Assembly: GCA_944472135.2 (NCBI GenBank)
Contig: OX235266.1
Coordinates: forward strand, 11,821,925-11,885,924
DNA length: 64,000 nucleotides
From: Trichobilharzia regenti
Taxonomy: Eukaryota; Platyhelminthes; Trematoda; Strigeidida; Schistosomatidae
Direction: 5' to 3'
The notes beneath the pieces were generated by a model that saw only the letters and a list, made by a program, of their open reading frames with translations, was not told where the DNA came from and did no database searches. Shown one piece after another: positions 12,378-57,103 of this stretch (position 1 is the first letter of the stretch; every line of letters begins with the position of its first letter). Made by a program: the position numbers and the translations under genes.

Positions 12378-12442
12378 TACTAATATTTTCAGGATTTCAT
12401 CATGAGCTGACATTAGTTAGAGAACCATTGGAAAACCTGGGA

Positions 12443-12488
12443 GTACTGGACAGCTGTTTCGTCCTAGTTTGGGACTCTTCAGCAGTAC
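12443..12488 (-). ncRNA. intact hammerhead ribozyme (left arm)
   Basis: Minus strand: stem I GTACTG/CAGTAC (6 bp); core CTGAAGA; stem II GTCC/GGAC with loop CAAACTA; GAAA; stem III ACAG/CUGU, which is self-complementary with essentially no loop; cleavage after CUGUC. All invariant core residues are present. The tiny self-complementary stem III is like the dimer-acting hammerheads of newt satellites, retrozymes and SM-alpha. Confidence 0.85.
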
Positions 12489-12812
12489 GCACCCACCGGG
12501 ATTCGAACCCAGGACCTTCCGGTTACAAGGCGAGCTCGTATACCATTAAGCCACTGGGACCCGATCCAATGGTCCTTGAATTCTAACTTCTGCCAATTCA
12601 CGACATAGCGCGACCGCTAGCCAATGTCTTCGGCGAGTATTTGTCCTCACACCCGACCAAATACTCGCCGAAGACATTGGCTAGCGGTCGCGCTATGTCG
12701 TGAATTGGCAGAAGTTAGAATTCAAGGACCATTGGATCGGGTCCCAGTGGCTTAATGGTATACGAGCTCGCCTTGTAACCGGAAGGTCCTGGGTTCGAAT
12801 CCCGGTGGGTGC

Positions 12813-12858
12813 GTACTGCTGAAGAGTCCCAAACTAGGACGAAACAGCTGTCCAGTAC
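12813..12858 (+). ncRNA. intact hammerhead ribozyme (right arm)
   Basis: Mirror copy of the left-arm ribozyme, on the plus strand and identical in sequence. It follows the B-box GGGTTCGAATCCC by about 15 bp, so a pol III transcript starting at the tRNA-like head would contain it. Confidence 0.85.
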
Positions 12859-13359
12859 TCCCAGGTTTTCCAATGGTTCTCTAACTAATGTCAGCTCATG
12901 ATGAAATCCTGAAATCAATCAAATCCCTACAAACCAACACTTGAATACTAATATTTTATTTAAATAGTATACAATTATTGGCTAAATAATTTTGCTGAAA
13001 GCGCCAATAGAAGGAAGTCGGTCACTTTGATTCCCTGCTTATAATTCCTGCAAGAGAAGTAATTAGAAGGCAGAATTTAGACTGACATCTAAAAGTCCTT
13101 GAATATCAACACAACCTTAAGCCATGAAAATTCTGTTGTTTAGGTGTTGCTTATTTTGTTCAGAATGCGTTGTACAACGGGTAGTGAATTTTAAACACAG
13201 CTCTGTGTAGCAGAGAATGTTTTAACTATTATTTTTCTGATTTCTGATGTCACCAATTCACTACCAGCATCTCCTTTGAAAAATAAAGTTTTATATATAC
13301 GTTTCTTCCGTATCGTTTGAAAGCCCTTTCTTCTCTGTCTATCTTTCTATTCTCATCAT

Positions 13360-13680
13360 AAAGACTTTAACGAATTCTTGAGGATATCCATTCTCGTATA
13401 ATGAGTTTTCTATCCTCCTTATATTTCATCTTCCAGAGTGTTAGTCGTTCCATTTTTTCTAGCAGTAAGCATCGGAATACCGATGAGATTTCACTTGTAT
13501 GCAAGACATACAAACGATGTGAAATGGGTATGTTGGGCAACCCATGACTTTTTATTCCAGAGTACACCCAGGGTAGAACTGCCATCTTGCCTTCTTGCCA
13601 GAAAGACATCAAGTAATGATAGGTTGTTGTCTAAAACATTCTTTGCGCTACAACACTATGTTTAAAATTCACCTCTCGCT
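13360..13680 (-). mobile_element. Penelope-like element RT fragment
   Basis: Minus-strand frames give NNLSLLDVFLARRQDGS, then THFTSFVCLAYKK and ENGYPQEFV. This is the PLE region between RT and endonuclease (L.FLDV...R..DG....V.RK....QY..F.S..P..YK). It is short and frameshifted. Confidence 0.6.
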
Positions 13681-13704
13681 GGATAACTCCAGTACAGGTG
13701 AAGA

Positions 13705-13885
13705 ATAATCTCCCCAGTCTGACCACTTCAATATGTGTTCATTATAAGTTTAACTGTGTTTTTGGAGACAGTTATACAGGTGGAACGACCCAACAAGCCC
13801 ACCATCGCCTTCTTGAGCGTTGTTCAAGGTGATTAAATAAAGGAGTCGTAAAATCAGTCAGGCGTTCTGTGTTGTTGCATAATAA
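13705..13885 (+). mobile_element. Penelope-like element GIY-YIG fragment
   Basis: Plus-strand frame: CVHYKFNCVFGDSYTGGTTQ followed by RLLERC and a SVRRSV block. This aligns with the PLE GIY-YIG block CIYQFNCTCGDSYVERTT of the copy at 8020. It lies head to tail against the minus-strand RT fragment at 13360, so the two are an inverted pair or separate insertions. Confidence 0.55.
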
Positions 13886-13899
13886 GATTGGTAAAAAAA

Positions 13900-16280
13900 A
13901 TTCCGCCTTTACACTTCCATCAAGGTCAACATCTGGATTTCTCCTTTCCACTTTCTTCTTTAATAAAAATTTGAAAGAAGAAATAGAAATGAATAAGAAA
14001 AAGGAGGGTGGAAATTTGTGAGTACACGGAAGACTTCAACTTGGTCGTCCCTTCAGTGTGCGTGGGTGTGTGTGTATGTGTACGTATGTCTAATAATATG
14101 AAGGTCACAGATGGAAGAAATTCTGAGCATTTTATATACACTTTAATATACAAAATCAACACATATATATGCATAAATTTGTGAATATATATATATATTT
14201 AATTTCAACTTATTTTAGTAAAGAAATATAAATTAATTTCTGTTTTTACTCAACAAGGTATAAGTGAAATTCCCATGGGGCGATGTGTAGTGGCCGTGGG
14301 ATGTGGGGAGGGGTGAGAATTTTCCTCTCTGTGAAACCACAATGATATATAAGAACGGAAATGATGACATTTCGATTCTCTCTCTCTCTCTTTTCTTCGA
14401 GTTATTTCTATGCCATGTGAGTCATATTCTAATGAGGGGAGAATAAAAATTATCGGATTATTGTTATGTGTGTGTATATACATATTCCCCGTTTTTCATC
14501 TTATTCTCTCCTTCTCCCCCTCCAACAACAACACCGACAACAACCCGCTATCTTGTGCTTCATTTTATTTCCAACCTTTTCTCCCCACATATTAGGCTCA
14601 CATTCACTGTCTCATCATCCTTATTGACTAAAAGTGTTACAATTTGCTTTGTGGTTTGAATATTTTTCATTATTTCTCTTCCTTTCAGTTACTTGTTGTA
14701 TCTGAAATTTTCCTTTCCCAAACCTCATTTATTCTTAATTATCATTTTTTTTTGTAATGAAAAGCTGCTGATCTCTTTTTGTCGATATCATCATCAACAT
14801 TGTCAGCATCATTAATACAAATGTGAGGAATTTATTAATTTATCGATCAATACATATATGAGTATGGATTCGCTTATCTGTGAATGAAAATGACCTTGAA
14901 GTGATTTTTAATTAATTAAAACAAAAAGTGGTAGGGTTAAATGTTCAACGTCCGAGATATATGTATATTTGTATATATTTACACTGACTGGTTGATTTGT
15001 CACGATATTTCCACACATACTCACACACGCAGACATACACACATAGACAGACGTTGTTATTTCCATTTTTAGTCTGAGAAGAGAAATTACTTTGATGATT
15101 TTTCTTTTCTGAGAGAAAACGTAATGGGATTAAATTTCTCTCTTTACACACACATATTATGCATGCATATGTATATAAGCATATTTGGTCATTTATATGA
15201 ATTTAAAGTTTAAGTGATAAATTCGAAGGTGAACGGAGTATGTTCTCTCTCTCTCTTTCTTTTTCCCTTGTTGAACATTTTTTCTCTTTTAGACTGATAT
15301 CTGAAACTTTTTTGTTGTTGTAGAGTTTACTTAACAAGCTGGTGTTGTGTGTGTGTGTGCACGTGTGTCTCACTATGTCTGTATGTGGATATCAAGTGGT
15401 GAGGGAGTGTATGTATGTAGTCTTTCTTTTATTGAAGGATGAACTCACATCTCATCATGCAATTGTGTAATCATATATATATGTAATTCACATAGAATCC
15501 ATATGTTCTAAGGACTTGAGTACATACATACAAGATGGAATAAGTTTTATAATGATAAGCAATAAAATTAGTTGAATGAACAGGAGTGAGGAGTTGGTCT
15601 AAAATTATCTGGTAGTTTGAAAAGTATTGCAGGATGAGGTATAGGTTGTTTTAGAACTGAACATCAGGTTCCTTTTCTGTATATTCTTGCCTCTTCTCAT
15701 CATTTATTTGATGACAGATGTGAAATACACCAAAATTTCCCCCAAAGCGTCTATTTTCAGACCGCCTACATATTTTACAGAAAGAATATATGTATATATA
15801 TATATATGTATATATATGCTCTACCCAGGGTGCCAAAATAGCGGTTACGCTGCCCAAGGTGAGAACGATGGATTGAGGTGAAGCTGCGCTGCTGGGTAGC
15901 ACACAGTTGGGTTTTTGGGTAATAATAAAAAAATATATTTTAATATTAACATAATCATCGTTTATTTTCTAAGAGAATTAATGCTCTTTTTACTTTTTTA
16001 TTCTACTTATATTTATTTTGATTGAAGTTACCAGATGTGTAGGCTAACTCAGACAGTCTCATCAATCAGTAGATCCATTGCTCAGTTCTACATGAGGTCA
16101 GTAGTGAACCTGAACCTCAGTGATAACGTTTTTTCCTGCAGCTCTAGGTGATGCAGATTGGAAACGCCAAGCTAACATCTTTCTCTCCTCGTTTATAGAT
16201 ACACTGCGCTGATGAGTCCTGGTAAACATGAAGTCTAGTTCAGACGACGTTTCCTGCCAGATTATCTACAACAGCCTATC
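13900..16280. other. AT-rich DNA without a recognised gene
   Basis: Microsatellites include (GT)n near 14055-14075, (TA)n near 14187-14200, (CT)n near 14380 and 15245, (GT)n near 15345 and (TA)n near 15788-15820. No coding region or transposon can be supported. Confidence 0.5.
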
Positions 16281-16285
16281 ATCAA

Positions 16286-16815: not shown

Positions 16816-17079
16816 GATTCGCTTTCCTGGAAATAGGCACCCAACTATAAAAAACTAGTTAGTTGTCCATTCCATGTACGTTTCTGGTGGACAGATCCTA
16901 ATTTGGATTTCTCTCAATCCCAGTGAATAATAACTCTAAGAATAGATATAAATTAAAAGGAATAGGGACTATAAATTCCCAAATGTTTGTTATTCTGGTA
17001 GCATTGACATGATGGTAATATAAATTCAATTTTATGTCTTAATAATGACAATGATAATAACAGTAATTTGGGAATTATC

Positions 17080-17440
17080 GGCAGCACCCATCTTCCGCCA
17101 GGGGTAGAACCCACGAACTTTTGGTTACAAGGCAAGTAAGTTCGTATACACCACTCAGCCACTGGGACCCGACTGTTCAATGGCCAGTGCGCATGAATTC
17201 TAACTTCTACCCATTCGTGATGCATTTAGTGCAACTGGCACCAACCGACCAATGTCATCGGTGGGACATCCATCCTCACACACTTGACTGGTTGGATGAA
17301 CCTTACTGGTCACAACTACACACACTAGAACTGCTCCAGGAAACTCCGTCCGTCCTGTAGTTAGTCGTCACTGTCGAGCATCAGATTAATTTTCTGTAAT
17401 TGGTTTGTAAGGAGATTAGATTTCAAATCTTTAAATATTC
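17080..17440 (-). repeat. family E hammerhead-SINE, truncated
   Basis: Minus strand: body ending TAATCTGATGCTC near 17385, tRNA-like head (ccactgggacc and GGGTTC/GAACCC region at 17100-17165), then the start of the hammerhead (GTGCTGCCGATAATTCCC). It stops there, so the ribozyme lacks its GAAA and 3' half. The core start reads CCGATAA rather than CTGATGA. Confidence 0.6.
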
Positions 17441-18350
17441 CCATATATAATATTAGAACAAGACATATAAGCGAACAATACTGTTGTTTTCAATTAGATC
17501 TTCTTCAGGCTTTACTCTAATTTACATCGACTTATATATAAAAAATTTTAACCAATGACGGTGATTTTGTGGATCAAATAATAATAATAATAATAGTGAT
17601 GTGGTAAATGTTTTGAACGTAGTTAATAACGATGATTATAATGATAACAAAATATTGATAATAAGGTTTATGCAGGTGGCGATAAGAATAACAAAGCTAG
17701 TAATATGTGTAGACAATTCAATAAACAGATAATTAAGTCAAATCTTAAAAGTTACGTAATACTAAAGGTGAAGTGGACAGATAATCAGAGTTTAAATAAA
17801 TATCATAAAAGTACCAAGGAGATAGAAAATAAGAAAGGGTGGGAGGGTATTGGATAGAATTCACCTAGGCCAAGTACGCAAAGACTAGGATTGTTCTCTC
17901 GAATTCTCCTATAGCTTTGTCTGTGTATAAAAGGTGGGTTCTGATTCCGTTCGAAAGACTCGATGGAATACGATAGATAACTTTGAAGGCACTATTTTTG
18001 TCCATTTGGTAACTGCTATCATCTCAATTAAATGAGCCAAAATAGAACTTCTTATAGATTTTATTTGACCTTTTCTGAACCATGAAGGAAGATGTTCATT
18101 AATGCGTTTGTTAAGCTGTCTAGTTGTTCGGCCTATATAGCTAGCTTCAACTAAATTTATAGATACACATGGTAGGTAGCTTGAGCACTTTCACTTGAGC
18201 AATCAAAATTGGTCGGTAGCTGGAGAATGACAAACAGAGGAAGGTGGCGACAGTATAACTGCATTTTCATCGCTCTCCATAATCTCTGATGTAAGACATC
18301 GCTAGCCACGTCCCTATTGATTAGTTTTGTTTTTACGAGTTTGACCACAG
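17440..18350 (-). mobile_element. Penelope-like element, 3' half
   Basis: Minus-strand blocks in order: LINRDVASDVLHQRLWRA near 18320, a decayed GIY-YIG region (IGRTTRQLNKR-like), then NSAFKVIYRIPSSLSNGIR near 17960-17930, then a 3' UTR ending near 17445 with CCTGAAGAAGATC. Several stops break it. Same layout as the copy at 8020. Confidence 0.65.
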
Positions 18351-18765
18351 ATTGATAACATCAGTTAGAGAACGATTGAGAACCAGTCACAGGGAGTACT
18401 GGACACTGATGATACTGGTCGCGGCGGTCGCGTTAAATGCATCACGAATTGGTAGAAATTAGAATTAATGCACTGGCCGTTGAATAATTCGGTCCCAAAG
18501 AATGGCTTAATGATCTACGAACTCAATAGCCTTGTAACCTGAAGGTTCTGGGTTCGAACCGCCACAATGTGAGTGGGTACGTACTGCCGATTATTCTCAA
18601 ACTTTGGAGGGGTGGGTGTTTCGAGGTGAAACAGTTATCCAGTACTCCCTGTGACTGGTTTTTATTGCTTCTCTAACTGATGCAATCAATCCGTGGTCAA
18701 ACTTGTAAGGAAAAAACAAATCTAATCCCTATAATAAACCAACTATTGAAAATAATGATAATATT
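18317..18765. repeat. family E hammerhead-SINE, head-to-head
   Basis: A short minus-oriented part (18317-18408, ending inside the hammerhead at GTACTGGACACTG) faces a longer plus-oriented part (18425-18765) with the tRNA-like head and TCTGGGTTCGAACC B-box. The plus hammerhead (near 18581-18640) has CTGCCGATTA for the core and a disrupted stem II, with GAAACAG and ATCCAGTACT retained. It is decayed. No clear target duplication was found. Confidence 0.6.
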
Positions 18766-18779
18766 GAAATACATCAAGC

Positions 18780-19540: not shown

Positions 19541-19544
19541 ATTA

Positions 19545-19726: not shown

Positions 19727-19738
19727 TTATTAGTGGGT

Positions 19739-20091
19739 TGGTTATAGGATTTCATTATGAGCTGATATTGGTTAGAGAACCATTGGAAAACCAGCCAGAG
19801 GGAGTACTGGACAGCCAACTGTTTTGTCAGTCTAGTTTGTGACTCTTCAGAAGTACTCAAACACCTAGTGGGGTTCGAACCCAGACCTTCTGGTTACAAG
19901 GCCAGCGAGTTCGTAGATCATTAAGCCACTGGGAACCAATCTAATGGCCAGCCCATGAATTCCAACTCTGCCAATTCACGATGTAGCGCAACCGGCGAAG
20001 ATATTGGATATTTCAATGGTTCTCTAACCAGTGTCAGCTCATGATGACAACCTGTAACCAGTCAACTAAATCCTTACAAATCAATGCTTGA
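19739..20091. mobile_element. family E hammerhead-SINE insertion, foldback
   Basis: Bounded by 12-bp direct repeats TTATTAGTGGGT (19727-19738) and TTATTGGTGGGT (20092-20103; one mismatch). Most is minus-oriented (hammerhead remnant 19818-19872, tRNA-like head 19880-19940). At about 20012 it switches to plus orientation (CAATGGTTCTCTAACC...CAATGCTTGA), repeating in inverted form the segment at the left end. The hammerhead has an insertion in stem III and a broken GAAA. Confidence 0.75.
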
Positions 20092-20103
20092 TTATTGGTG
20101 GGT

Positions 20104-22542: not shown

Positions 22543-23127
22543 TTACAAAGGATAGCGTTCGCGTATATGTTGCAAAAAAACCTCCCAGTTTCTCATGGGA
22601 GTCTTCATAGTCATATGAAACCAGTTTCGGTACATAAATTCATCCAGGTAACTGTAAATCATGGGATTTCTCGATCCATTAACCGCTCTTACACGTCTTT
22701 TTAGACGACTCCAAAAACTTTCGATGGAATTAGTGTGGGTTCCATCCAAAGGATTCCGGAAGCCGTCCGTATGATTAACAACATGCTGAATGTACCCATG
22801 ATTCGATAATTGACGGTATCCGCTCCATTCATCTGTATGAATAGTCGTCCCCGGCAACACCAAACGCTTAATAATAGGCACTAATACTGCTGCACTGCGA
22901 TTGGGAATCGCTTCTATATACCTTTTGCGCAGTGTCGTGTCGTATATACCCAGGCCATCAATGGCCGCTGTGTATTTTTGTATATGCATAACTCCTCCGC
23001 ATCGGCAAATTTTCGACCTAGCTATCAGTCCGTTATCCAAACAGTAATCGAAAACATGATCCGGAGTGAATTTGCAACGCAAAAGGTGTAAAGCATCCAT
23101 GATTACTTCGGCAAATGATACAGTCAC
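22543..23127 (-). CDS. Merlin transposase, internally deleted
   Basis: The frame is 194 codons with no stop and starts 13 nt inside the right terminal repeat. Residues ~39-46 form a zinc-finger remnant (KICRCGG). Residues ~58-100 read GLGIYDTTLRKRYIEA and RSAAVLVPII. The second catalytic Asp is in LPGTTIHTDEWSGY, and the Glu is in GTHTNSIESFW. Merlin/IS1016 transposases are DDE enzymes whose first Asp lies in a V-E-I-D-E-S-like motif; that block, with the second half of the zinc finger, is missing between QKYTAA and IDGLGIYD. The reading frame is kept across the gap. The protein is therefore probably inactive, unless the missing part lies on another exon. Confidence 0.8.
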   Translation of the reverse strand: MTVSFAEVIMDALHLLRCKFTPDHVFDYCLDNGLIARSKICRCGGVMHIQKYTAAIDGLGIYDTTLRKRYIEAIPNRSAAVLVPIIKRLVLPGTTIHTDEWSGYRQLSNHGYIQHVVNHTDGFRNPLDGTHTNSIESFWSRLKRRVRAVNGSRNPMIYSYLDEFMYRNWFHMTMKTPMRNWEVFLQHIRERYPL

Positions 23128-23139
23128 CTGATTCCTTGC

Positions 23140-24330: not shown

Positions 24331-24679
24331 ACCAAAAAAATAGGTATTATTGACAGGAGTGGTACACTTCTGTGTTGAAATAATATCGACTTGTTCAGTT
24401 GTTCAACCGAATTGCGTACAGTTCAAGGAAGCATATATGAGTGAGCAGTAATAATGCATAAAAACGTAAACATAATACTAGAATGAATATCAGATGAAAT
24501 TAAGAAGACAATTTGTACGACAATTAAAGACAGTTAAAACAATGAGATATCCAAGGTAGAGAGATTGTCTGAACAGACTTCTTCTGGCATACATAAGTTT
24601 CCCTTTTTGCAGATGGGCTTCGATGGCTCCAGCTATATATGTAGAAGACGACGAACTTGTAAGCCGAAATTGATATGAA

Positions 24680-25216
24680 TTGGAAAGTCAGGAAGGGGAA
24701 CTTCCAATGTTAGATTGCAACGTAAAAAGGAAAGAAGATGGGAAGTTAAACACTAATGTTTATAGGAAACTCACACATTCAAACAGATATTTGGACTCCC
24801 GATCATCCCATCCTATGTCAGTTAAAATAGGATTAGTGAAATGTTTAAATGACAGAGCACAAAAACTAACTAGTACCAAGGAAAATCTAAGACAGGAAGT
24901 GATACACATAAAAGAAGCCTTGAAACTTAGTAATTACACGGATAAATTAGTAAAGAAATATGTAAGTAAATGTAAAAATGAAATAAATAGTGATGGTAGC
25001 GATAGTGATGATAATAATAACAATAATAATGATAGTAATAATAATGGTAATAATAATAATAGTGATAATAATAATATTAATGACGACACCATCAATAAGG
25101 AACCTAAATCATCAGTAGTAATTCCATACAAAGAAGCAACATCGGAAGCCTTACGCAGAATTCTTAACAAGGCAGGAATAAAAGTGGCTAGCATTCAAAT
25201 CCACAAACTCAATTAG
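24680..25216 (+). CDS. Penelope-like element linker ORF with Asn-rich insert
   Basis: An open frame of 178 codons. The N-terminal half (LPMLDCNVKRKEDGK, NVYRKLTHSNRYLDSRSSHP, KIGLVKCLNDRAQ) is the conserved PLE stretch after the RT palm. Residues ~108-140 are an Asn/Ser/Asp run coded by AAT/GAT repeats (25000-25085). The rest (EATSEALRRILNKAGIKVAS) is the pre-endonuclease segment. The RT palm itself is not found upstream, so the copy is 5'-truncated. The PLE type differs from those at 8020 and 57104. Confidence 0.65.
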   Translation: MESQEGELPMLDCNVKRKEDGKLNTNVYRKLTHSNRYLDSRSSHPMSVKIGLVKCLNDRAQKLTSTKENLRQEVIHIKEALKLSNYTDKLVKKYVSKCKNEINSDGSDSDDNNNNNNDSNNNGNNNNSDNNNINDDTINKEPKSSVVIPYKEATSEALRRILNKAGIKVASIQIHKLN

Positions 25217-25690
25217 AAACTAGCTTTATCGGTTAAAGGATCCCGTGGATCCTTTAAAACAGAACAATTTAGTGTATCTCATACCCTGCTGGAATGATTG
25301 TCAGGTCAAATACATAGGTCAAACTAGTAGAACAGGGCAGTCAGACTAGCCAAACATAAAAACCTAGCAGCAAAATCTAGATTGGTTGACCCAAATAAGA
25401 TAAGAAATCTAGAGAGTAGTTCAGCTATAGCACTACATGCAGTTACACACAACCATACAATAGGATGGGATAGGATGACAGTTTTAAAATCTAATGTCAC
25501 AGGGTATAGGGAGAGATTGATAACAGAAGCTTTGTTTATCGAATCAACTGCAAATACATGTAATAGAAATGATTCAACATCTGTCCCAGATATGTGGAAA
25601 ATTCTACTACCATTACGACAAATAGGAGAAGACAAAGAAACATATAAAACTAAAATTTCAAAGTCGTGTGATCAAAATTGATATGATTAT
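25217..25690 (+). mobile_element. Penelope-like element GIY-YIG domain, frameshifted
   Basis: Continues the ORF at 24680 after a stop. NNLVYLIPCWNDCQVKYIGQ with TSRTGQS is the GIY-YIG core. One base is lost or gained near 25345, after which RLAKHKNLAAKSRLVDPNKI, SSAIALHAVTHNHTIGWD and GYRERLITEALFIES follow. The endonuclease would nick DNA for target-primed synthesis; this copy is broken by the stop and frameshift. Confidence 0.7.
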
Positions 25691-25892: not shown

Positions 25893-26640
25893 CATTTTGC
25901 TTGGGACTCTCCAGGATTCGAAACCAGGACCTTCTGATTACAGAGCAAGGTTGTTAACCATTCATCTACAGGGACGCAGTCCAGTGTTCAATCCATGGAC
26001 TGCAACCTCTCCGAATTCGCTATATATATGTTTTACGAGTTGGTCACGGATTGATATCATTTAGAGAACCATTGAAAACCAACACCGGAGTACTGGACAG
26101 CTGTTTCACCCCACCTCCTCCCAAAGTTTGGGAATCATCGAGAGTACGCATCCACCACCACAGTTCGAACCCAGGACCTTCCGATTACAAGGCTAGTGAG
26201 CTCGTAAATCATTAAGTCACTCTCTGGAACCTGACTGAGTGGCCATCGTATGAATTCTAACTTCTACCAATTATTGATGCACACGTGAATGGATGGACCT
26301 CACTGATTACGACTTCTCACTAGAACTGCTCCAGGCAACTCTGTCCGTCATGTAACAAGTCATTAGAGAGCATCAGATTAGTTTTCTATAAGTGGTTTGT
26401 AAGGATTAGATTTGTTTTTTCCTTACGAGTTTGACCACGGATTGACAGCATCAGTTAGAGAAGCATTGAAAACCAGCCACAAGGGTTACTGGACAGCTGT
26501 TTCACCCCACCCCCTCCCAAAGTTTTGGGAATCATCGGCAGTATGCACCCACTGGTTTGCAATGGTTCTCTAACTGATATCAATCCGTGATGAGTTCGTG
26601 AAAACAGAGCTAATCCTTTCAAACCAACTATAGAATATGT
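25893..26640. repeat. family E hammerhead-SINE cluster
   Basis: A minus-oriented remnant (25893-26031) is followed by a minus unit (26032-26400), a second partial minus unit in tandem (26400-26552), and a plus-oriented end (26553-26640, GCAATGGTTCTCTAACTG). So a tandem 1.4-mer again faces an inverted end. Hammerheads near 26088-26150 and 26485-26545 keep CAGCTGTTTC and stem I but have a changed core (GCCGATGA or CTCGATGA) and an extended stem II. Confidence 0.6.
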
Positions 26641-27719: not shown

Positions 27720-29700
27720 CCCATAGACATTCCTACCGGCGTCCAACAGTCATTATATTTCTTCACCTAAAGGCGGAATTCGGTTCTGTCGACCGATAAG
27801 TTCTCTGGAGATGCTTGGCTGTAAAGGGAATACCGAGAAAATACATTACACTGATCAAGGCACTTTACTCATACTCATGCAGCCAGGTGAGGGCTTACGG
27901 CGAGTTGTCATCTGTAGTGGTGACGACCAGTGTGTTATAACTTGCTCTGTCTGCGCCTGAACTTATATGTTATATAGTTGCGCTGAACAGAATAAAAACT
28001 GTCGTCGTTTGCTTGCTATAGCTGCAATGAATTAAGGTAAAAAAACCCCGTCGCCAATTTGTTATATCTGTAGGGGATTGAATGATGACGTTTTCACCTT
28101 ATTCTGTCTGCGCCTGAACTAATCTGCCTATCTGCTTGACGTACCTTCCGACTTGGTAAAGCACGCAAATATCAAAAGACAAAGGCTGGACTGTGACTGT
28201 GTATTGAGGTGCAACAACGATAAAGAAAGCCATGGTATTTATACATTTTACAACAATATGGACAGCTAACAGCATTTGAAATAATTGACCTTAATAGCCA
28301 ATAACAAAGTGTGTGAGAAATGATAATATGCCATATGTGCGACATTGACAGTCAGTAACAAAATGTGTGGGAATGATTATATACCATATATACAAAATTA
28401 GCAGTCACTACCAAAATGCGTGAGAATGATAATATACAAAATTAGCAGTCAATACCAAAATGTGTGAGAATGATAACATACCATATATGCAAGTTTAAAC
28501 AGTCAATACCAAAATATGTGGGATCCTATCACAGTGGTGTCCGTCAAGGATGCTCATTATCCCCATTTCTGTTCAACTTCATCATAGATGTACTAATGGA
28601 CTTAACCCTAAGTGACTTCAGTGACTCAGGGATTGACTTGTCACCAGGGAATAATAGTGTCGTTGACTTAGAATATGCAGACGACAAAGTGCTACTAGGT
28701 GAGGAGTCGGAAAAAATGCAGAGTCTTCTAAACACCTTGAGCTGCAATCTACGAATGTTTGGCATGCGATTCGCTCCTGCTGTCAAATGTAAGATGATGT
28801 TACAGAACTGGACTGGACTACACTGGCTCCTAGATCAGAAATAGGGAGTGAAGTGGTTGGTGGAGCATGTTGACCGCTCCTCTTATTTGGGAAGTACCAT
28901 CAGCCAGTTCCAACGGGTTGATCTCTGACGAAATCTCAGCACGGATACAGGGGGCTCGTTTCGCATTTGCCAGTTTACGCTGTCTCTGGCGTGAACGAGA
29001 TATTCGACTATCGACCAAAGGGCGAGTGTACTGCACATCAGTCCGCTCCGTCCTCCTTTATGTCTGGCTGTGAGACCTGGCCACTGAGAGTGAAAGACAT
29101 GAAAAGCCTGGCTAACTGTCTTTGATCATAGGTGCCTACACTCTATCTCCCATGTGAAGTGGCATAATAAGGTGAGCAATATTGAGGTTAGGCGTCGAGT
29201 AAGTGCTAGGTAAACAGGGGAAATCAATCAACGAAGTCGTGAAGCTACAAAGACTGAGATGGTTAGGACATGTGTTACGTATGCCTGGTCATCGCCTCCC
29301 TCGACGATTAATGTTAGCGGATGTAGGGTCAGGCTGGAAAAAAGCTAGCGGCGGTCAAACAAAAACATGGCACCACTCAATGAAATCCACAACAGTTAGT
29401 CTAAGCCACGTAGGAAGGTGTAGACTTCCAGGCTGGGGTCCTCGGGACGGTAAAAATCTATGGTTTGAAACAATTGGTGATATGGCTCAAAATCGTTCTC
29501 AGTGGCACAGATGCATCCACTCCTTGTGACTTATGATTTCCAATGAAACTAAATTGTTCTTCGTTATTACTCCTCTTTTGTCTCACTCCTCTGCTCACTG
29601 TCTCTATTTTGCATTTCTTGTACTTTCTTCTCTTGCTTCGTGTGCTACACGGAGTGTGGCGACTTGAACTGGTGCACATTCGTGCAAAGTTCTATGTCGA
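27720..29700 (+). mobile_element. RTE family B copy split by an LTR-element insertion
   Basis: The 5' part (27720-27932) reads HRHSYRRPTVIIF-like, FRSVDR, MLGCKGNTEKIHYTDQG-like, YSYSCSQVRAYGEL and VVVTTS. The copy resumes at 28534 with GVRQGCSLSPFLFNF (RT motif B), LEYADDKVLLGEES (motif C; YADD) and later LQRLRWLGHVLRMPGH, SLSHVGRCRLPGWGPRD and MAQNRSQWHRCIHSL. The host sequence joins cleanly if 27933-28533 is removed. Several frameshifts occur. The 3' UTR runs to about 29715. Confidence 0.85.
27933..28533 (-). mobile_element. LTR-retrotransposon remnant (LTR, primer site, LTR end)
   Basis: Inserted in RTE-B; the flanks share GTG (3-4 bp depending on the border). On the minus strand: 28533-28060 is an LTR starting TGTGATAGG, with ~65-bp degenerate tandem repeats, a TATAAATA box, and an end ...ATATAACA. 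Then AATTGGCGACGGGG (28046-28059) fits a primer-binding site. A short leader follows, and finally AGTTCAGGCGCAGACAGAGC...TATAACA (27933-27965), which repeats the LTR's own 3' part. The coding region is gone. Confidence 0.7.
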
Positions 29701-31385: not shown

Positions 31386-31480
31386 AACTTCATCCACGAT
31401 AAATCCGCAGATAACCCCGGTGAGTTCGTTCCATTTTGTATTTGTTCTTGTACCATATATTATTCGACATAATTTTCGTC

Positions 31481-32308
31481 ATGAGTGATCTTAGTCCCAA
31501 GGTCATTCGTATCCGCTCAACTCCTAAAACCATTCAGCTCGTACCATACTGGCCAGATAATGCTGAAACGTGGTTTCTGCTAGCTGAAGCAGATTTTTGT
31601 GAGCATGGGATAACCGATCAACGTTCACAGTTACTTGCAGTTATTCACGCCCTACCGCGGGAATTCAGCAAGTACGTAACATCACAGATGTTGAGTCCCG
31701 AGGTAAGTAACTCGTACGAGTTGCTCAAAGCATCCCTCCTCAGGAGAAACGTTCTCACGGACCGACAACGTCTAGATGAATTATTTCGTAACATCGAGTT
31801 AGGAGATCAGTCAGCCGTGAGCATGCTGACAAGAATGAAAGAAATTGTTGGCCAAAGTCAGTTCGACGAAGGACTGTTTAGAGAACTCTTCTTAACCAAG
31901 CTGCCACAGTCTGTACAGACCGTACTTGTGACACTTCAGGGTACTGTAATAGAGGACTTAGCTATTACTGCAGATAGGATTCTAGAAATAACTAAACGGT
32001 CAGTTCCCGAAATATGCTCGATGACTAAGCAGACTTCGAGTAAGGATCCTGCAATGATAGAGTTATGCAACTCCATCCAACAGATGTTTAGGTCAAACAT
32101 GCCTTCTAACTCCTCCGACCGTCGTCCTAAATCTCCTCAACGCAGGAACTCACGTGGTCGATCTAAGTCCAAACCACGTTCACTGAAAAACCCTGACTGG
32201 TGCTGGTACCACAACACCTATGGCCAAGAAGCGAAGTGTTGCCGTAAGCCTTGTAACTTCGGAAATGTCTCAAAGTCTGTGGGAAACTATCCCGCCGGCA
32301 CGCGTTAG
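31481..32308 (+). CDS. gag: Gag polyprotein of the Gypsy element
   Basis: 275 codons from the ATG at 31481 (MSDLSPKVIRI); earlier in-frame triplets lack ATG. Residues ~20-180 form a capsid-like region (WPDNAETWFLLAEADF; LPREFSKYVTSQ; DRQRLDELF). Residues ~200-245 are basic and Ser/Arg-rich (SPQRRNSRGRSKSKPR). Near residue 255 is CWYHNTYGQEAKCCRKPC, fitting the CHCC finger (CX2HX9CX3C) of CsRn1-type Gags. It packages element RNA in particles. The frame is intact, unlike pol, and it stops within the start of the pol frame. Confidence 0.85.
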   Translation: MSDLSPKVIRIRSTPKTIQLVPYWPDNAETWFLLAEADFCEHGITDQRSQLLAVIHALPREFSKYVTSQMLSPEVSNSYELLKASLLRRNVLTDRQRLDELFRNIELGDQSAVSMLTRMKEIVGQSQFDEGLFRELFLTKLPQSVQTVLVTLQGTVIEDLAITADRILEITKRSVPEICSMTKQTSSKDPAMIELCNSIQQMFRSNMPSNSSDRRPKSPQRRNSRGRSKSKPRSLKNPDWCWYHNTYGQEAKCCRKPCNFGNVSKSVGNYPAGTR

Positions 32309-32787
32309 CGGCAACCGTCGCCGGTGGCACTAGCCGCCTACTTTACATCCATGATGTGATAAGCCAGACTCGATACTTAGTCGACACAGGCGCCGAAGTC
32401 AGCGTCCTTCCTGCTACAGCAGCAGATCGACAGAAGGAACCTACCTTCAACTTACAGGCTGCAAATGGAAAACCAATCGCAACCTTTGGTAGGAAATACG
32501 TCTATCTGAACGTAGGTTTACGCAAACCTATTCGGTGGATTTTCCTTCTCGCTGACGTTACAATGCCCATCATTGGCACGGACCTACTTAATCATCATGA
32601 TTTACTCGTAGACGTCCGCCGAAAACGACTGATTGACAATACTACTAGTCTGTCTATCAAAGGCATCAGCTACATAGGCCCTAGTTTGTCACCCGTTAAG
32701 ATAAAGGCAATTCTTGATCCAACTTTTCAACCTATGTTGACAAGTATCCGGAACTTAATTGCCCGTCGAACGACCTACCGTGCATAA
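32305..32787 (+). CDS. pol: Pol: aspartic protease segment
   Basis: The frame is -1 relative to gag and overlaps its last codons. It reads [14 protein letters not shown]..., then [14 protein letters not shown], the DTGA catalytic motif of retropepsins, and a later hydrophobic IIGTDLL that fits the second conserved protease motif. The frame ends in a stop after RRTTYRA. The RT continues in another frame, so an indel lies at about 32735-32755. The protease would cleave Gag-Pol; no ATG near the start suggests expression by frameshifting, as in related elements. Confidence 0.8.
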
Positions 32788-32798
32788 CCAGCAATGTT

Positions 32799-33683
32799 AT
32801 GCACCACATCATTACCACAGGACAACCTGTGACATCTAAAGCACGACGATTAGCTCCTGACAAACTGAGAATCGCCAGGAATGAATTTGACCATATGCTT
32901 ACCCTTGGCATCATTCGACCTTCGAATAGCCCATGGGCATCCCCACTTCATATGGTTCCGAAAAAGGATAGCAATGATTGGCGACCCACCGGTGATTACC
33001 GGCGAGTGAATGCCAAAACAACCCCTGATTGCTACCCGTTGCCTCATATACACGACTTGACGGCAACCTTATCCGGCGCGACTATATTCTCCAAAATCGA
33101 CTTGGTTAAAGCGTATAACCAAATCCCGATGGCAACAGAAGATATCCCGAAAACGGCTATCATTACGCCTTTCGGACTTTTTGAATTTCTACGTATGCCA
33201 TTCGGTCTCCGGAATGCAGCCCAAACATTCCAACGCTTCATTGACGAAGTATTTCGCGGTCTCGACTTTGTATACGCATACTTAGACGACTGCCTCATTG
33301 CCAGTCCAGACAAGGAAACTCACCTTAGGCACTTGGACTTGGCATTTGAAAGGTTACGCCAACATGGTGTTACCATTAATATTCAAAAGTGTCAAATCGG
33401 TGTTGACTCACTCGACTTCCTGGGTCACACTATTGACTGCAAGGGCATTCGCCCACTGGCTACTAAGGTCGAGGCTATACTGAAACCGGCTTACTTGGAG
33501 GGTAATCCTATTAGCATAGAGCTCAACGTACCCCAAAATCCACAAGTAACAGAAGATCGTTTAGACATCGATGAAGTCACTAGCACAGCGACAGCTACCG
33601 AACCTTCTATCGAGCCTCCCAAGAAAACCCGTTCTGGACGCACCGTAAGGTTCCCAGAATATCTGCACACTTATTTGACTTAA
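32799..33683 (+). CDS. pol: Pol: reverse transcriptase joined to pol C-terminus
   Basis: The frame is open upstream of the ATG (residues [12 protein letters not shown]), so it continues the protease. RT motifs: [42 protein letters not shown] (Asp 1), [18 protein letters not shown], and [11 protein letters not shown] (YLDD; Asp 2 and 3), then [14 protein letters not shown]. At about 33484 the sequence jumps from VEAILK to an Asn/Pro-rich stretch and ends [12 protein letters not shown], a typical Gypsy pol terminus. The join is in frame. RNase H and integrase are absent, so the copy cannot integrate itself. Confidence 0.85.
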
Positions 33684-34937: not shown

Positions 34938-34949
34938 GAAAATGAATTC

Positions 34950-35420
34950 TCAAGTATTGCTTTTGTAGGGATTTTGCATTTGATTGCATGGAGGATTTCA
35001 TCATGAGCTGACATCAGTTAGAGAACCATTGAAAAACCAGGGAATACTGGACAGCTATTTCTTTCTAGTTTGGGGCTCTTCAAAAGTACGCACACACACA
35101 GCGGGGTTGTAACGCAGGTCCTCCTGGTTACAAGGTGAGCTCGTAGATCATTGAGCCACTGAGAACCGATCCGATAGCTAGTCGATGAATTCTAACTTCT
35201 GGCAATTCACGACATAGAGCGACCATTTCGCAATGTCTTCTTCGATGAGTTACTGCCTCATCTTGAACCGTATAACCAGAAGGCCCTGGGTTCGAACCCA
35301 ACAGTGTGGGTGCGTACTGCTGAAGCAGGGTCCCCAACTAGGACGAAACAGCTGTCCAGTACTCCAGTTGGTTTTCCAGTGGTTCTCTAACTGATGTCAG
35401 CTCATGATGAAATCCTCCAT
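34950..35420. mobile_element. family E hammerhead-SINE insertion, minus-oriented foldback
   Basis: Bounded by 12-bp direct repeats GAAAATGAATTC (34938-34949 and 35421-35432). It starts at the left with the reverse complement of the family 3' end (TCAAGTATTGCTTTTGTAGGG), continues minus-oriented through hammerhead and tRNA-like head to about 35262, then flips to plus orientation with a head fragment, hammerhead and ...TGAAATCCTCCATG. Both hammerheads are decayed (plus core CTGAAGCAGGG). Confidence 0.8.
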
Positions 35421-35432
35421 GAAAATGAATTC

Positions 35433-43529: not shown

Positions 43530-44700
43530 GCATTGGTTCTTACCTACTAGAGGAACACAATCAGTCAGGGATTTCAATGACTGATGAAGCCATGTTTTGG
43601 TTTGACCACTACCACATCTTTTCCAACCTGATCAATCAATCAATCCTATGTCAGTCTGCCAACATTGACCGTTGTCGCGGAAGGCGATTGATGACTGGGA
43701 TCAGTCTGTTTCTTTTCAACATAGAACGCTGCACTGATGTGAAGCAGTTCAAGTTACACCACACTCCCTCCTTGTAGCACACAAAGCAAGAGAAGAAATG
43801 CAAAATAGAGACAGTAGACAGGGATATGAGGCCATATCACCGATTGTTTCCAGCCATTGGATTTTGCCGTCTCGAGGACCCCAACCAATCAGAAGGACTA
43901 CACCTTCGTATGTAGCTGGTTTAAACTAACTGTTGTGGATTTCATTGACTGGTGAAGCCATGTTTTGGTTTGACCGCCGCTGACTAGCTCTTTTCCAACC
44001 TGACCTTATGTCAGCTAACATTACTCATCGGTCGAGGAAAGCAATCAATGGCTAGAAAATCAAAACAAGATTTTTCTGAACGTTTCGCCGTGTAAGCCAC
44101 AGCTTCTTCAGCAGATTTATTCGGATTATACTTAATCATCAAAATATATAGTCAAATTTTTTTTACATAAAATGAAGTCTATATATATATATATATATTT
44201 GACTATATATTTTGATGATTAATTATAATCCGAATAAATCTGATGAAGAAGCTGTGGCTTACACAGCGAAACGTTCAGAAAACAGATCTTGTTTTGATTT
44301 TCTTAACACGCTGGGATTAATTTAAATAATTTATAATGAATCAATCTGACTCGGCGCTCAAATTATTCCAGGAAATTCGTAACACCTACGGTCTGGAAAC
44401 CTATAATCAACGGCTAGGCATACATGCGTAATACATGTCCTAACGATCTCAGTCAATGTAACCCCACAGCCTCGCCGATTGATTTTCCCTCCAACTCACC
44501 TAGCAGTCGACCGATGCCTAACCTCAATATTGCTCACCTTATTATACCACCACCTAACACACACAGCAGATAGAAGGCAGACACCACCTATGACCAAAGA
44601 CAGCTAGCCGGCCTTTTCATGTCTTCCACTTTCAATGTGGGCCATGTCTCACTCACAGCTACAAAAGAAGGATGCAGCGAACTATTGTTGTAGTGGTCCT
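43530..44700 (-). mobile_element. RTE family B 3' end, interrupted by a foldback insertion
   Basis: Minus strand, from about 44700: CLSLVIGGVCLLSAV-type, NKVSNIEVRHRSTAR-type and LRSLGHVLRMYA-like blocks to 44418, then resuming from 44055 with DMSNVS, KEIHNS and GPRDGKIQW-like blocks, and the 3' UTR to about 43740. A further duplicated 3' end lies at 43530-43740. Insert 44056-44404 splits the body. Frames are broken. Confidence 0.65.
44056..44404. mobile_element. short foldback insertion with PLE-like terminus
   Basis: Flanked by AATCAATGGCTAG (44043-44055) and AATCAACGGCTAG (44405-44417), a 13-bp target duplication with one mismatch. Arms 44054-44157 and 44197-44303 are inverted copies of about 105 bp around a (TA)n centre. 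They carry CTGAAGAAGCTGTGG and GCGAAACGTTCAG-like words, which resemble the 3' ends of the PLEs here. The remaining 100 bp (44304-44404) is single-copy. Confidence 0.6.
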
Positions 44701-50060: not shown

Positions 50061-50063
50061 ATG

Positions 50064-50290: not shown

Positions 50291-50344
50291 AGGGAAAAAA
50301 TGGTGTAAATTGTATTCTGATACTATACATAACACTTTAATTTT

Positions 50345-51000
50345 ATTGCATGGAGAATTTCATCATGAGCTGACATCAATTAGAGAACCACTGGAAAACC
50401 ACCTAGGAGTACTGGACAACTGTTTCGTCCTAGTTTGGGACTCTTCATCGGTACTCACCCACTCAACTGGGTTCGAACCCAGGACCTTCTGGTTACAAGG
50501 AGGGCTAGCTCGTAGATCACTGAGCCACTGGAAACTGATCCATCATGATGAAATTCTCCATGGAATCAAACAAAATAAATCCCTTCAAAACCAATACTTG
50601 AAAATTAATCTGATGCTCACTAGCGGCTGGCCCTATTCAGGCAGTTAACCTGGGGTTCTAGTGGGAAGTCAAGACCAGTAGGGTACAGCAGATTGATGAT
50701 GAGGCAGTAACTCATCGAAGCAGAAGACAGTGCGAAATGGTCGCGCTATGTCGTGAATTGGCAAAAGTTAGAATTCGAGGATCATTGGATCGGGGCCCAG
50801 CGGCTCAATGGTCTACGAGCTCGCTATCCCTGTAACCAGCAGGTCCTGGGTTCGAACTGTGGTGGTGGATGCGTACTGATGAAGAGTCACAAACTAGGAC
50901 GGAGGAAACAGCTGTCCAGTACTTCCAGTGGTTCCCTAACTGATGTCAGCTCATGATGAATTCCTCCATACAATCAAACAAAATCCCTAAAAAATCAATA
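50345..51000. repeat. family E hammerhead-SINE, head-to-head with tandem plus unit
   Basis: A minus-oriented part (50345-50541; hammerhead 50409-50455) meets a plus-oriented run that begins with the unit's 3' end (TCATGATGAAATTCTCCATGG), continues through a full unit (tRNA-like head at 50793-50860, hammerhead 50870-50930) and repeats that end at 50952. The two ends are ~408 bp apart, giving the unit length. Both hammerhead cores start ATGAAGA (C3 to A). No clear target duplication found. Confidence 0.7.
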
Positions 51001-51185
51001 CTTCCATTTTAATGAAGTAGAGCACTGAATAACAAGTAATTATTTCACATCTTTAATATTTAATGACATTCATTATCTGTCAGTGCTGATGAACATTGAA
51101 TCGTATTCGTTTATTCGAACTTGCCTCCATTTGGCGGGAAACAAGAAAGCTATCGTTGCTTATAAGTAAAGTAAAATTACATTTG

Positions 51186-52181: not shown

Positions 52182-52199
52182 TAATCAGAAATATAAATT

Positions 52200-52710: not shown

Positions 52711-52714
52711 GATG

Positions 52715-54350: not shown

Positions 54351-54479
54351 GGTTTCTTCACCTTAATGGCAAGAGCTTTAACAATGCCAGAAGAGATGAA
54401 ACAATAACACCTTCAGTAGTTTGTTCTTCACCTTGTTCAAAAACCAATGTATCTGGTTCCCCATCAACAGGTGAACTAA

Positions 54480-54960
54480 TATACACACATAAAAAGTAGT
54501 CAGATACGAGATCTTGTTCTTCAGGTTTCTATAGATTAAAGGACCATTGGAGAACACTAATTAATTAGCACTGGTGCAAAGAATGTTCTCCTTCTGAAAA
54601 ATGATGAAATACTTCCCTTAAGGATATCGCAGGTTAAGTCTCCCTTGGAATACAGGTTCACATGTGAAAGTTCAGAACACGTTCCTTTGAATTTTTGGCT
54701 TGATATTCTTGTTAATTAAATCTCGGTGGGTATCCATTTTGGATGAGGGTTTCTTCCAGAAGATCTAAACCTGCTTCTAGGGACTAAAAGACTCACAGAT
54801 GTGTCGGATCCATGTGGCAAAGAATTTAATAAAATTGCGTTTTCGTTCAATAGACATACAACCGTTCCAAGTGGGTTTCTCCTATGGAATGGCCTTCTTA
54901 GGGTTCCACCGGATCTTCTTGTTAGTTCCACATCAAGAATTCAGGAGTGAATTTTACTGC
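54480..54960 (-). mobile_element. Penelope-like element fragment
   Basis: The minus strand parallels 30533-30910 (FKGDLTCDIL..., LRRTFF-like region near 54560-54660) and continues upstream to KFFATWIRHICES-like residues. Heavily decayed. Confidence 0.5.
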
Positions 54961-55299
54961 TGGACGGCAATTTTTAAATACCTGTAGCAATTGAATGAGG
55001 TTAATGGTCAATTTTTTATGAATTAAACATACGTTGAAGGGACATTCAAGTGGCATTACGCATTAGGCCCTATAGTGGAACGTGAATACAAAGCAACGAG
55101 CTTAGTATCCAACGGTGACATGGAGAATATTATGTTAGGTGGGATGAAACATCGTCGGCAGTTGTGGAGCCAGCTAAAAATGACTGCCGAGGACAGAATA
55201 CAGTGATGAGGATGCTGTCTCCTGAAGCATCATATCCCACCGGGAACCCAATGAATCAATAATAGTATTATTAATCTGTTTTAATAAGGATAAAACCAT

Positions 55300-55860
55300 C
55301 ACAACGGTTCCTAAGAAGACTCGCTTCATGAACCTAGAATTCAAAGGTGACATCACAGCGGAAATTCTTAGAAACTGCCTTTCAAAAAGTCTGAAGAAGA
55401 CATTTCCAACAGCCACCCTACCTACGTATCACATTCTCCTGCAGAGACAGTTAATCCAGTCTAACGCTAAGGACAAGATACCGCTTTCGGCCACATTAAT
55501 GTATTGTATTTATCAATTTATTTGTTCGTGTGGAGCAAAGTATATCGACCGTACGCGGCGTCAAGTCCACAAACGTATTCTGGAACACTGTCCAGCTTGG
55601 TTAGCCAGCCAGAGGAGAAAAGGAGAATAGCAACAGCTCGCGATCCTCGAACACCTTGTCATCTCCGGACATCGAGCACCCCCACCCCCGCATGAATGCT
55701 TCACAGTGGTACACAGACTCCCTTAATATCGTACAAAGGGACTTCGGATACGCCACCTCTGTACATAGCTGAAGCATTAGCTATTCCAGACCTGAAACCG
55801 GACCTGTGCATACAAAAGCGATACATACATTCTCTTGCCCTACCATGGCCAGAGTAAAGT
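55300..55860 (+). mobile_element. Penelope-like element, linker and GIY-YIG
   Basis: A 100-codon frame reads FMNLEFKGDITAEILRNCL, SKSLKKTFPTATLP and MYCIYQFICSCGAKYIDRTR (GIY-YIG: the YIG is YID), with RRQVHKRILEH. Then a shifted frame has LKPDLCIQKRY near 55795-55830. The catalytic Arg/Glu environment is partly intact, but the frame stops at 55630. Confidence 0.7.
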
Positions 55861-56212
55861 TCTTACTACAATTTTGCTTCTTTCTTTTAATATGTAAGTT
55901 CACTATAATAATAATTATTATTATTGTTCTTAATACTTTTATTATCATTATTATTCCCATCATCCACATTTTATTACCACTGTATTACTGTTTATTAATA
56001 ACATTGCTTTTTCATACAGATTTTATACACAAGAACACTTTATGGCCTTCCCACTAGCTTATTGATTAGTCATTATCGCACACTTGTTAAGACGTGCCAA
56101 CTTTTGTCTCCCTTCTTACACACCTTAACATTATGTAATGCAATTTTTCAAGGACAAAGTTTACCAGTATCTGATTGGTCTAAAAAAAATTTCTGTGTTA
56201 ATTATAATTACG

Positions 56213-56943
56213 TATGGAGGATTTAATCATGAGCTGACATCAGTTAGAGAACCACTGGAAAACCACCTGGAAGTACTGGACAGCTGTTTCGTCCTAGTTT
56301 GGGACTCCTCATCAGCACGCACCCACCGGGGTTCGAACCCAGGACCTTCTGGTTACACGGCGAGCTCGTAGACTATTGAGCTACTGGGACCCGATTCAAT
56401 GGTTCTTGAATTCTAACTTCTGCCAATTCACGACATAGCGCGACCACTTCTCAATGTCTTCTTCGATGAGTTACTGCCTCATCATCAACCTGCTGTACCC
56501 TACTGGTCACGACTTCCAACTAAAACCCCAGGTTAACTGCCTGAATAGGGCCAGTCGCTAGTGAGCATCAGATTAATTTTCAAGCGTTGGTTTTGTAGGA
56601 ATTTGGTTTCATTGTATGGAGGATTTAATCATGAGCTGACATCAGTTAGAGAACCACTGGAAAACCTGGGAGTACTGGACAGCTGTTTCGTCCTGGCAGA
56701 AGTTAGAATTCAAGAACCATTGGATCGGGTCCCAGGGGCTCAATGGCCTATGAGCTCACTAGATTTGTAACCATAGGGTCCTAGGTTCGAATACTGGCGG
56801 ATGCACACTGATGAAGAGTCCCAAACTAGGACGAAACAGCTGTCCAGTACTTTCAGGTTTTCCAGTGGTTCTCTAACTGATATCAGCTCATGATTAAATC
56901 CTCCATACAATCAAACCAAATCCCTACAAAACCAACACTTGAA
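56213..56943. mobile_element. family E hammerhead-SINE insertion, tandem plus inverted
   Basis: Bounded by 13-bp direct repeats AATTATAATTACG (56200-56212 and 56944-56956). It contains a full minus unit (56213-56614), the start of a second minus unit (from 56615, TATGGAGGATTTAATC again), a switch at about 56695, and a plus-oriented part with tRNA-like head, hammerhead (56797-56860) and the 3' end CAACACTTGAA. Hammerhead cores start ATGAGGA or ATGAAGA (C3 to A), with stem II, GAAA and stem III intact. Confidence 0.85.
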
Positions 56944-57103
56944 AATTATAATTACGATTGTACAGCAGCTCATTTGATAATGAATCGTCGAAAAGGGAAG
57001 ATTTTCTTCGCTGTTTGCGCCTTTTTTTTCTTCTTATGACTTAATATGGGAATATTTCGTTCATTGAAAAACCATTATTACAAAGTCAAACAATACACTT
57101 AAA

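What the first reader, a model, noticed from the sequence alone, without database searches (positions are those of the whole stretch)
12378..56956. Family E hammerhead repeats insert as head-to-head inverted dimers with 12-13-bp target duplications
Four loci (12390-12945, 19739-20091, 34950-35420, 56213-56943) each have clear direct repeats at the borders and an orientation switch inside. Three more (18317, 25893, 50345) show the same switch without clear duplications. The 3' end (...CAACACTTGAA) is constant, while the switch point varies. This suggests that the cDNA routinely folds back on itself during target-primed synthesis, perhaps because the template is a self-cleaved or circular multimer. 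I know of no description of this as a habit of a SINE-like family.
Basis: partly seen in the sequence, partly recalled or inferred. Interest (0 to 1): 0.85.

Follow-up and report, generated by a model that had tools for sequence, protein, structure and literature searches.

The report
Ribozyme repeats inserting by two-ended copying
A short self-cutting RNA repeat in a blood-fluke-like genome often inserts as two mirror-image copies, in the same way as the Penelope retrotransposons of that genome, most simply because copying starts from both sides of the cut DNA.

Summary
Family E is a 393-405 nt SMalpha-like hammerhead repeat. In 38 distinct loci chosen only by their 3' end, 27 are head-to-head dimers and 11 direct copies; in a young, biased set 17 of 33 are dimers. 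Both outer ends are nearly fixed: one arm starts at the 3' end ("tail"), the other about 35 nt further in ("no tail"). Clean dimers carry 12-13 bp target duplications. Fold-back of one cDNA cannot be the general route: the no-tail arm runs further into the template than the tail arm in 26 of 46 measured dimers, and it cannot template the tail. The anatomy is that of Penelope-like elements (PLEs). The genome holds many PLE copies; 4 of 4 PLE dimers with both ends captured show one tail arm, one no-tail arm and shared repeats of 12-14 nt. Best explanation: PLE protein cuts both target strands, each end primes RNA-templated synthesis at one of two internal start sites, and the cDNA heads are joined. 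PLE mobilisation of retrozymes was already proposed in print; the two-cDNA geometry and the tail/no-tail rule in a retrozyme appear new.

The parts
12378..12389 (.). left target duplication TACTAATATTTT of the youngest dimer
12390..12659 (-). no-tail (N) arm, antisense, 100% identical to array unit 90..362; contains hammerhead 12443-12488(-)
12658..12945 (+). tail (T) arm, sense, ends CAACACTTGAA; hammerhead 12813-12858(+); heads share 2 nt; N arm reaches about 16 nt further 5' than T arm
12946..12957 (.). right target duplication
18317..18748 (+). older-subfamily head-to-head dimer: N arm about 18317-18423 (-), T arm about 18424-18748 (+); no clean duplication seen
   Evidence: read by eye
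19727..20103 (+). dimer with imperfect 12-bp duplications (19727-19738, 20092-20103, 11/12): N arm 19739-19994 (-), T arm 20011-20091 (+)
26030..26636 (+). older-subfamily dimer: N arm about 26030-26555 (-), longer than one unit, T arm 26556-26636 (+)
   Evidence: read by eye
34938..35432 (-). dimer on the minus strand with 12-bp duplications: T arm 34950-35262, N arm 35273-35420
50340..51003 (+). dimer: N arm about 50340-50542 (-), T arm 50543-51003 (+) spanning a unit-unit junction, so the template was multimeric or circular; duplication degraded
56200..56212 (.). left target duplication AATTATAATTACG
56213..56694 (-). N arm longer than one unit (unit -109..358), hammerhead 56273-56318(-)
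56694..56943 (+). T arm (unit 154..393), hammerhead 56805-56850(+)
56944..56956 (.). right target duplication
24674..25690 (+). decayed 3' part of a Penelope-like element (end of RT, Asn-rich stretch, endonuclease region as read by eye); its relatives are very numerous in this genome

Best explanation
Family E is a non-autonomous hammerhead retroelement (SMalpha-like, non-LTR retrozyme type) that is inserted by the PLE machinery of its genome. The PLE protein cuts both target strands with a 12-13 nt stagger that leaves 3' overhangs. Each 3'-OH primes reverse transcription of the element RNA (circular or multimeric) at one of two internal start sites about 35 nt apart: one end starts at the T site, the other normally at the N site. 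Each cDNA runs a variable and independent distance, and the two heads are joined end to end with little or no homology; filling in the overhangs gives the duplication. If only one end is used, a direct copy with a trimmed duplication results. Shown: anatomy, counts, duplications, geometry, and the same anatomy in the PLE of this genome. Inferred: the enzyme, the circular template, the way the heads are joined.
For: (1) One tail arm plus one no-tail arm in 24 of 27 dimers of the tail-chosen sample (the 3 others are irregular at an outer end), in 17 of 17 typed E1 dimers and in the 7 window dimers (2 of them by eye); no tail/tail and no no-tail/no-tail dimer among these. (2) Snap-back excluded by geometry in 26 of 46; arm lengths uncorrelated in the C1 set, r about 0.13. 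(3) Duplications are 12 nt or more in 16/17 (E1) and 12/25 (C1; 12/27 if two irregular ones left out of that script are counted) dimers but in 3/13 and 0/11 direct copies, as expected if dimers need both overhangs intact. (4) The PLE of this genome lies head to head 20 times and tail to tail 0 times among neighbours within 8 kb in the 150 listed places; 4 of 4 PLE dimers with both ends captured have one no-tail and one tail arm, tail about 35 nt, shared repeats of 12-14 nt. (5) A purified PLE protein cuts and extends both target strands, starts reverse transcription at two internal sites that bound the tail, and prefers AT-rich targets (PMC11167929); 29 duplications here are 81% A+T in a window of 61% A+T.
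Against: No similarity between family E and the one PLE end piece compared beyond 11-12 nt, so recognition is unexplained. In vitro (PMC11167929) start sites did not differ between strands, so strict one-tail/one-no-tail use is not predicted there. 11 of 38 sample copies and 16 of 33 young copies are direct. 3 of 27 sample dimers have an irregular outer end. The tail-chosen sample cannot reveal no-tail/no-tail dimers, and the young set, found by best match to a query that includes the tail, is only partly free of that bias. 20 of 46 dimers taken alone would allow snap-back. PLE ends were read at only 4 loci. No expression or biochemical data.
Confidence: 0.75

Rival explanations
1. Snap-back: a single target-primed cDNA folds on itself at its 3' end and copies itself.
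For: The youngest window dimer has arms of 100% identity with a short loop (I1); in 20 of 46 dimers the tail arm is long enough to have been the template.
Against: In 26 of 46 dimers the no-tail arm contains sequence 5' of the tail arm's end, which a copy of the tail arm cannot have; a copy of the no-tail arm cannot have the tail. Arm lengths are uncorrelated.
Confidence: 0.06
2. Antisense-template or template-jump model as suggested for rotifer PLEs (PMC3846280): self-priming on an antisense transcript, or a jump from sense to antisense RNA.
For: Self-priming on an antisense template is proposed in print for head-to-head PLE copies; a template jump would allow free junction positions (my extension).
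Against: Gives no reason for the second arm to end at a fixed site about 35 nt inside the tail; in 24 of 27 C1 dimers it does. Does not explain why dimers have fuller duplications than direct copies.
Confidence: 0.12
3. Inverted genomic masters (palindromic source copies) are transcribed and inserted as they stand.
For: Head-to-head arrays exist, e.g. C25 (L010).
Against: Head junctions differ from locus to locus in the sets looked at; dimers with clean repeats each have their own. Only two pairs share a junction (L056/L058, L061/L062), judged segmental duplicates from their equal coordinates.
Confidence: 0.03
4. The same two-ended insertion, but driven by a LINE or another endonuclease rather than a PLE.
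For: No PLE-E sequence match was found in the one piece compared; LINE-like RT fragments are also present in the window (read by eye).
Against: Tail length, duplication length, head-to-head form and AT-rich targets match the PLE of the same genome or PLEs in print.
Confidence: 0.12

Closest known systems
SMalpha family of Schistosoma (Ferbeyre et al. 1998, known here through passages of PMC8490949)
   Same: SINE-like retroelement of similar size (335 bp element named there) with a type I hammerhead
   Different: No sequence comparison with SMalpha itself was made; passages read in PMC8490949 do not describe head-to-head dimers
Metazoan non-LTR retrozymes (passages of PMC7229834)
   Same: Type I hammerhead in 150-450 bp tandem repeats; arrays whose units share variants, as from circles; PLE suggested as mover
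   Different: Printed model makes tandem copies; passages read do not mention inverted dimers or a tail/no-tail rule
Penelope-like elements (PMC3846280, PMC11167929)
   Same: Head-to-head inverted ends, 30-40 nt tail on one arm, target duplications, AT-rich targets; the first three also found in the PLE of this very genome
   Different: Family E is far too short for an RT gene and shares no recognisable end sequence with the PLE piece compared
LINE-1 twin priming (recalled, not read)
   Same: Both target ends primed on RNA gives an inversion
   Different: As recalled, LINE inversions are adjacent, mostly non-duplicated segments without a fixed second start; here both arms start at fixed 3' sites and duplicate each other

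Membership tests
Metazoan non-LTR retrozyme / SMalpha type | type I hammerhead | tested here: met
   six family E matches over the Rfam gathering score in the window (35-54 bits)
Metazoan non-LTR retrozyme / SMalpha type | short unit in tandem arrays | tested here: met
   393-nt unit, 19 of 19 successive units on C34 identical
Metazoan non-LTR retrozyme / SMalpha type | RNA circles in vivo | not testable with these tools
   only indirect: 9 of 9 L038 units share a 5-nt insertion, six L028 units and its N arm share G127A, both absent from the C34 unit
Metazoan non-LTR retrozyme / SMalpha type | tRNA-derived Pol III promoter (SMalpha, recalled) | tested here: inconclusive
   ARAGORN finds no tRNA gene in the window; a B-box-like GGTTCGAATCC is visible by eye
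PLE-type insertion | head-to-head inverted ends | tested here: met
   27 of 38 loci, 17 of 33 young loci
PLE-type insertion | 30-40 nt tail on one of two inverted ends | tested here: met
   same in 4 resident PLE dimers
PLE-type insertion | target duplications at AT-rich sites | tested here: met
PLE (as a member) | encodes telomerase-like RT with GIY-YIG endonuclease | tested here: not met
   by size: unit is 393-405 nt; the RT is carried by separate elements
PLE (as a derivative) | end sequence shared with a resident PLE | tested here: not met
   best match 11-12 nt against one PLE end piece, L086; only that piece of one PLE family compared

The most novel reading that the evidence does not exclude
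Two cDNAs, primed from the two ends of one staggered cut and started at two different internal sites of the RNA (one T, one N, perhaps one per protomer of a PLE dimer, perhaps on one RNA molecule), are the normal PLE integration intermediate. The head-to-head dimer is then its regular product, and hammerhead retrozymes travel on it.
Probability: 0.5. Interest if true: 0.78.

Novelty: new variant of a known kind. Interest (0 to 1): 0.62.

Why it matters
How PLEs insert is an open question: the in vitro work read here leaves the steps after first-strand synthesis unvalidated (PMC11167929), and head-to-head copies were ascribed to self-priming (PMC3846280). A short, numerous passenger without an RT gene (7,533 tails at up to 2 mismatches) makes the geometry countable and speaks for two RNA-templated cDNAs. 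It also gives an anatomical link, rather than co-occurrence alone, between hammerhead retrozymes and PLEs.

Tried and rejected
Self-priming of one cDNA: rejected as the general route by arm geometry. "No-tail arm leads, tail arm trails on one RNA": not established; the excess of longer no-tail arms is weak once the 35-nt offset is allowed for (permutation p 0.058), the pairing looks random (18.1 expected, 19 seen of 25), and the young set leans the other way (5 of 17). Cleaved linear monomer as template: arm heads show no excess at the hammerhead cut (3 of 84 within 5 nt, 2.3 expected), so the template seems continuous across it. PF01541 search for the PLE found one match, read by eye as a SLX1-like host gene. 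A 12-nt match between the family E tail and L086 was first taken as a PLE start-site link; it lies in what looks like the C-terminal coding part of another PLE copy (compared by eye with L039), so it was dropped. Counting unit-unit junctions genome-wide did not complete. IMG/VR pattern scan: no match.

Rows dropped or set apart: L058 and L062 as segmental duplicates; L044 repeats the window locus; L009 and L010 reach contig ends and were not typed; L019 and L042 left out of the direct-copy duplication list because the repeat lies inside the element; L039 (12 bp by eye) was never entered in the set; L056 left out of the 24; L068 and L083 not used in geometry nor in the 25 (their repeats are 0 and 9). 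The 29 duplications are 29 of the 31 listed; L014 and L034 were missed in typing. The script missed 12-bp repeats that are visible for L029 and L049. Its search reaches 16 nt into the element, so some short repeats in its list are element sequence. Segments were assigned to one insertion by eye, and the arm coordinates were typed from those outputs.
Full report
WHAT THE WINDOW IS. The window is G000:C5:11821925-11885924 of a 954 Mb assembly in 548 contigs. A PLE protein of this genome (L039) has its best matches in Trichobilharzia and Schistosoma, so it is a schistosome-like fluke; the species is not known. Family E is a type I hammerhead repeat (fold of the ribozyme stretch, z -2.0). Its youngest form (E1) is a 393-nt unit; 19 of 19 successive units on contig C34 are identical. 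An older form (E2) has units of 399, 402 and 405 nt in the three tandem loci read. I number the unit so that it ends at CAACACTTGAA.

THE OBSERVATION. The four named loci are head-to-head dimers with target duplications of 12/12, 11/12, 12/12 and 13/13. The other three show the same switch without clean duplications. Each regular dimer therefore has one tail (T) arm and one no-tail (N) arm, and the head junction is what varies.

CENSUS. A 24-nt tail pattern at up to 2 mismatches has 3,793 + 3,740 matches; the reversed control has 0. The 100 places listed, perfect matches in map order, form 91 groups. Two are segmental duplicates. Of 38 distinct loci, 27 are head-to-head dimers and 11 direct copies. 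Of the 27, 24 are T+N. In L056 and L083 the second arm starts elsewhere, both with recognisable target repeats by eye, and L068 is irregular. None is T+T. A second set of 36 loci was taken from the best matches, so it is biased to young and long copies: 17 dimers, all T+N; 16 direct (14 ending at T, 2 at N: L017, L024); 2 contig-end arrays; 1 repeat of the window locus. The window adds 7 dimers, all T+N, two of them read by eye.

DUPLICATIONS. Best shared flank repeat >=10 nt: 13 of 27 (C1 dimers), 19 of 22 (E1 and window dimers), 2 of 11 and 6 of 15 (C1 and E1 direct copies), 6 of 341 in mismatched flank pairs. Duplications of 12 nt or more occur in 16 of 17 E1 dimers against 3 of 13 E1 direct copies (two spurious rows left out; Fisher p 9e-5), and in 12 of 25 C1 dimers (12 of 27 with L068 and L083) against 0 of 11 C1 direct copies (p 0.004 for 12 of 25). 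I read this as follows: in a dimer both 3' overhangs were used as primers and kept whole; in a direct copy one was trimmed. Among 29 of the 31 duplications listed, 20 are 12 nt and 6 are 13 nt; they are 81% A+T, and the priming 3' end is T in 22 of 29 (no-tail side) and 15 of 29 (tail side).

WHY NOT FOLD-BACK. If the tail arm was copied from its own end, the other arm cannot contain template 5' of where the tail arm stops. If the no-tail arm was the original, the tail has no template. The no-tail arm does run further 5' in 18 of 24 C1, 5 of 17 E1 and 3 of 5 measured window dimers, 26 of 46 in all; in the C1 set by more than 20 nt in each of the 18. Arm lengths within a C1 dimer are uncorrelated (r 0.13-0.14). 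By the alignment coordinates the heads mostly meet with a few shared bases or a short filler, as in end joining.

TEMPLATE. In the C1 set without L056, 5 no-tail arms and 1 tail arm of 24 dimers exceed one unit. In L028 six successive units and the other arm share G127A, and in L038 9 of 9 units share a 5-nt insertion; both are absent from the C34 unit. Heads show no excess at the hammerhead cut (3 of 84). This fits a circle or an uncleaved multimer, not a cleaved linear monomer. It does not tell circle from multimer.

THE RESIDENT PLE. The window holds a decayed PLE piece at 24674-25690, related to an RT-bearing frame in L039 (RVT_1, E 1.8e-11; 33% identity over 94 aa). Searching with it gave 36,791 first-look candidates, of which 150 were scored and listed, many with open frames of 918-923 aa. 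Among neighbours within 8 kb in that list 20 are head to head, 0 tail to tail and 24 tandem; two of the 20 look like one duplicated region. Both ends were captured for 4 of 5 pairs tried at the right distance: one arm stops at ...CAAACTAATATGGAA, the other continues about 35 nt, and the shared repeats are 13, 14, 12 and 14 nt, of which up to 2-3 nt at an end may be element. An earlier try at two of these loci missed the ends because I misplaced them.

KNOWN WORK. Read as passages and the Discussion: PMC3846280 describes head-to-head inverted pLTRs, an optional 31-bp tail on one of them, 8-10 bp duplications, and proposes self-priming on an antisense template. Read as passages and part 1 of the main text: PMC11167929 shows that a purified PLE protein cuts and extends both target strands, that reverse transcription starts at two internal sites, and that the tail is the interval between them; the parts I read do not discuss head-to-head copies. 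Passages of PMC7229834 and PMC7761336 name PLEs as candidate movers of retrozymes because both carry hammerheads and are found together. Passages of PMC8490949 place SMalpha among SINE-like elements. Passages of PMC4465651 concern PLEs in Trichobilharzia.

VERDICT. The pattern is real and is the commonest insertion form in the sample chosen by 3' end. It looks like PLE-type insertion, so the phenomenon is known in kind; its use by a hammerhead retrozyme and the evidence for two RNA-templated cDNAs go beyond what I found in print. The rule of one tail and one no-tail start, seen in the resident PLE as well, has no explanation yet; two RT protomers fixed at two places of one RNA is my guess.

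Noticed in passing
10618-10770: A second hammerhead repeat of another family with a tRNA-like 5' part by eye (Rfam 47.8 bits at 10718-10765).
   Followed up: no
17064-17460, 18317-18750, 25893-26640: Older subfamily with other arm ends (TTTTTACGAGTTTGACCAC... / ...CAACTATTGAA); the two dimers among these show the same tail/no-tail head-to-head layout by eye.
   Followed up: partly
31424-33683: Open frames resembling an LTR-retrotransposon gag-pol region (read by eye).
   Followed up: no
22543-23139 (-): 198-aa frame resembling an ISXO2/Merlin-type transposase (recalled resemblance, not searched).
   Followed up: no
57098-57228 / 57680-57810: 131-nt inverted repeat arms, 97% complementary, 451 nt apart; possibly another inverted insertion.
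   Followed up: no
44072-44157 / 44197-44282: 86-nt palindrome arms, 97% complementary, 39 nt apart.
   Followed up: no
28875-28956: Rfam mir-3492 match just over threshold, probably chance.
   Followed up: no
L039 1-1820 / 3228-5048: 1.8-kb inverted duplication, 99.7% identical, of a family E copy with its flanks and part of a PLE; real palindrome or assembly artefact.
   Followed up: partly
L042 945-1350: A young family E copy inserted inside an older family E copy, with the target repeat inside the element.
   Followed up: partly
L086 192-340 / 362-801, also L061, L062, L079: A PLE-like segment in sense orientation joined through about 22 nt to an antisense coding segment, same junction in several loci; an inherited inverted structure.
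   Followed up: partly
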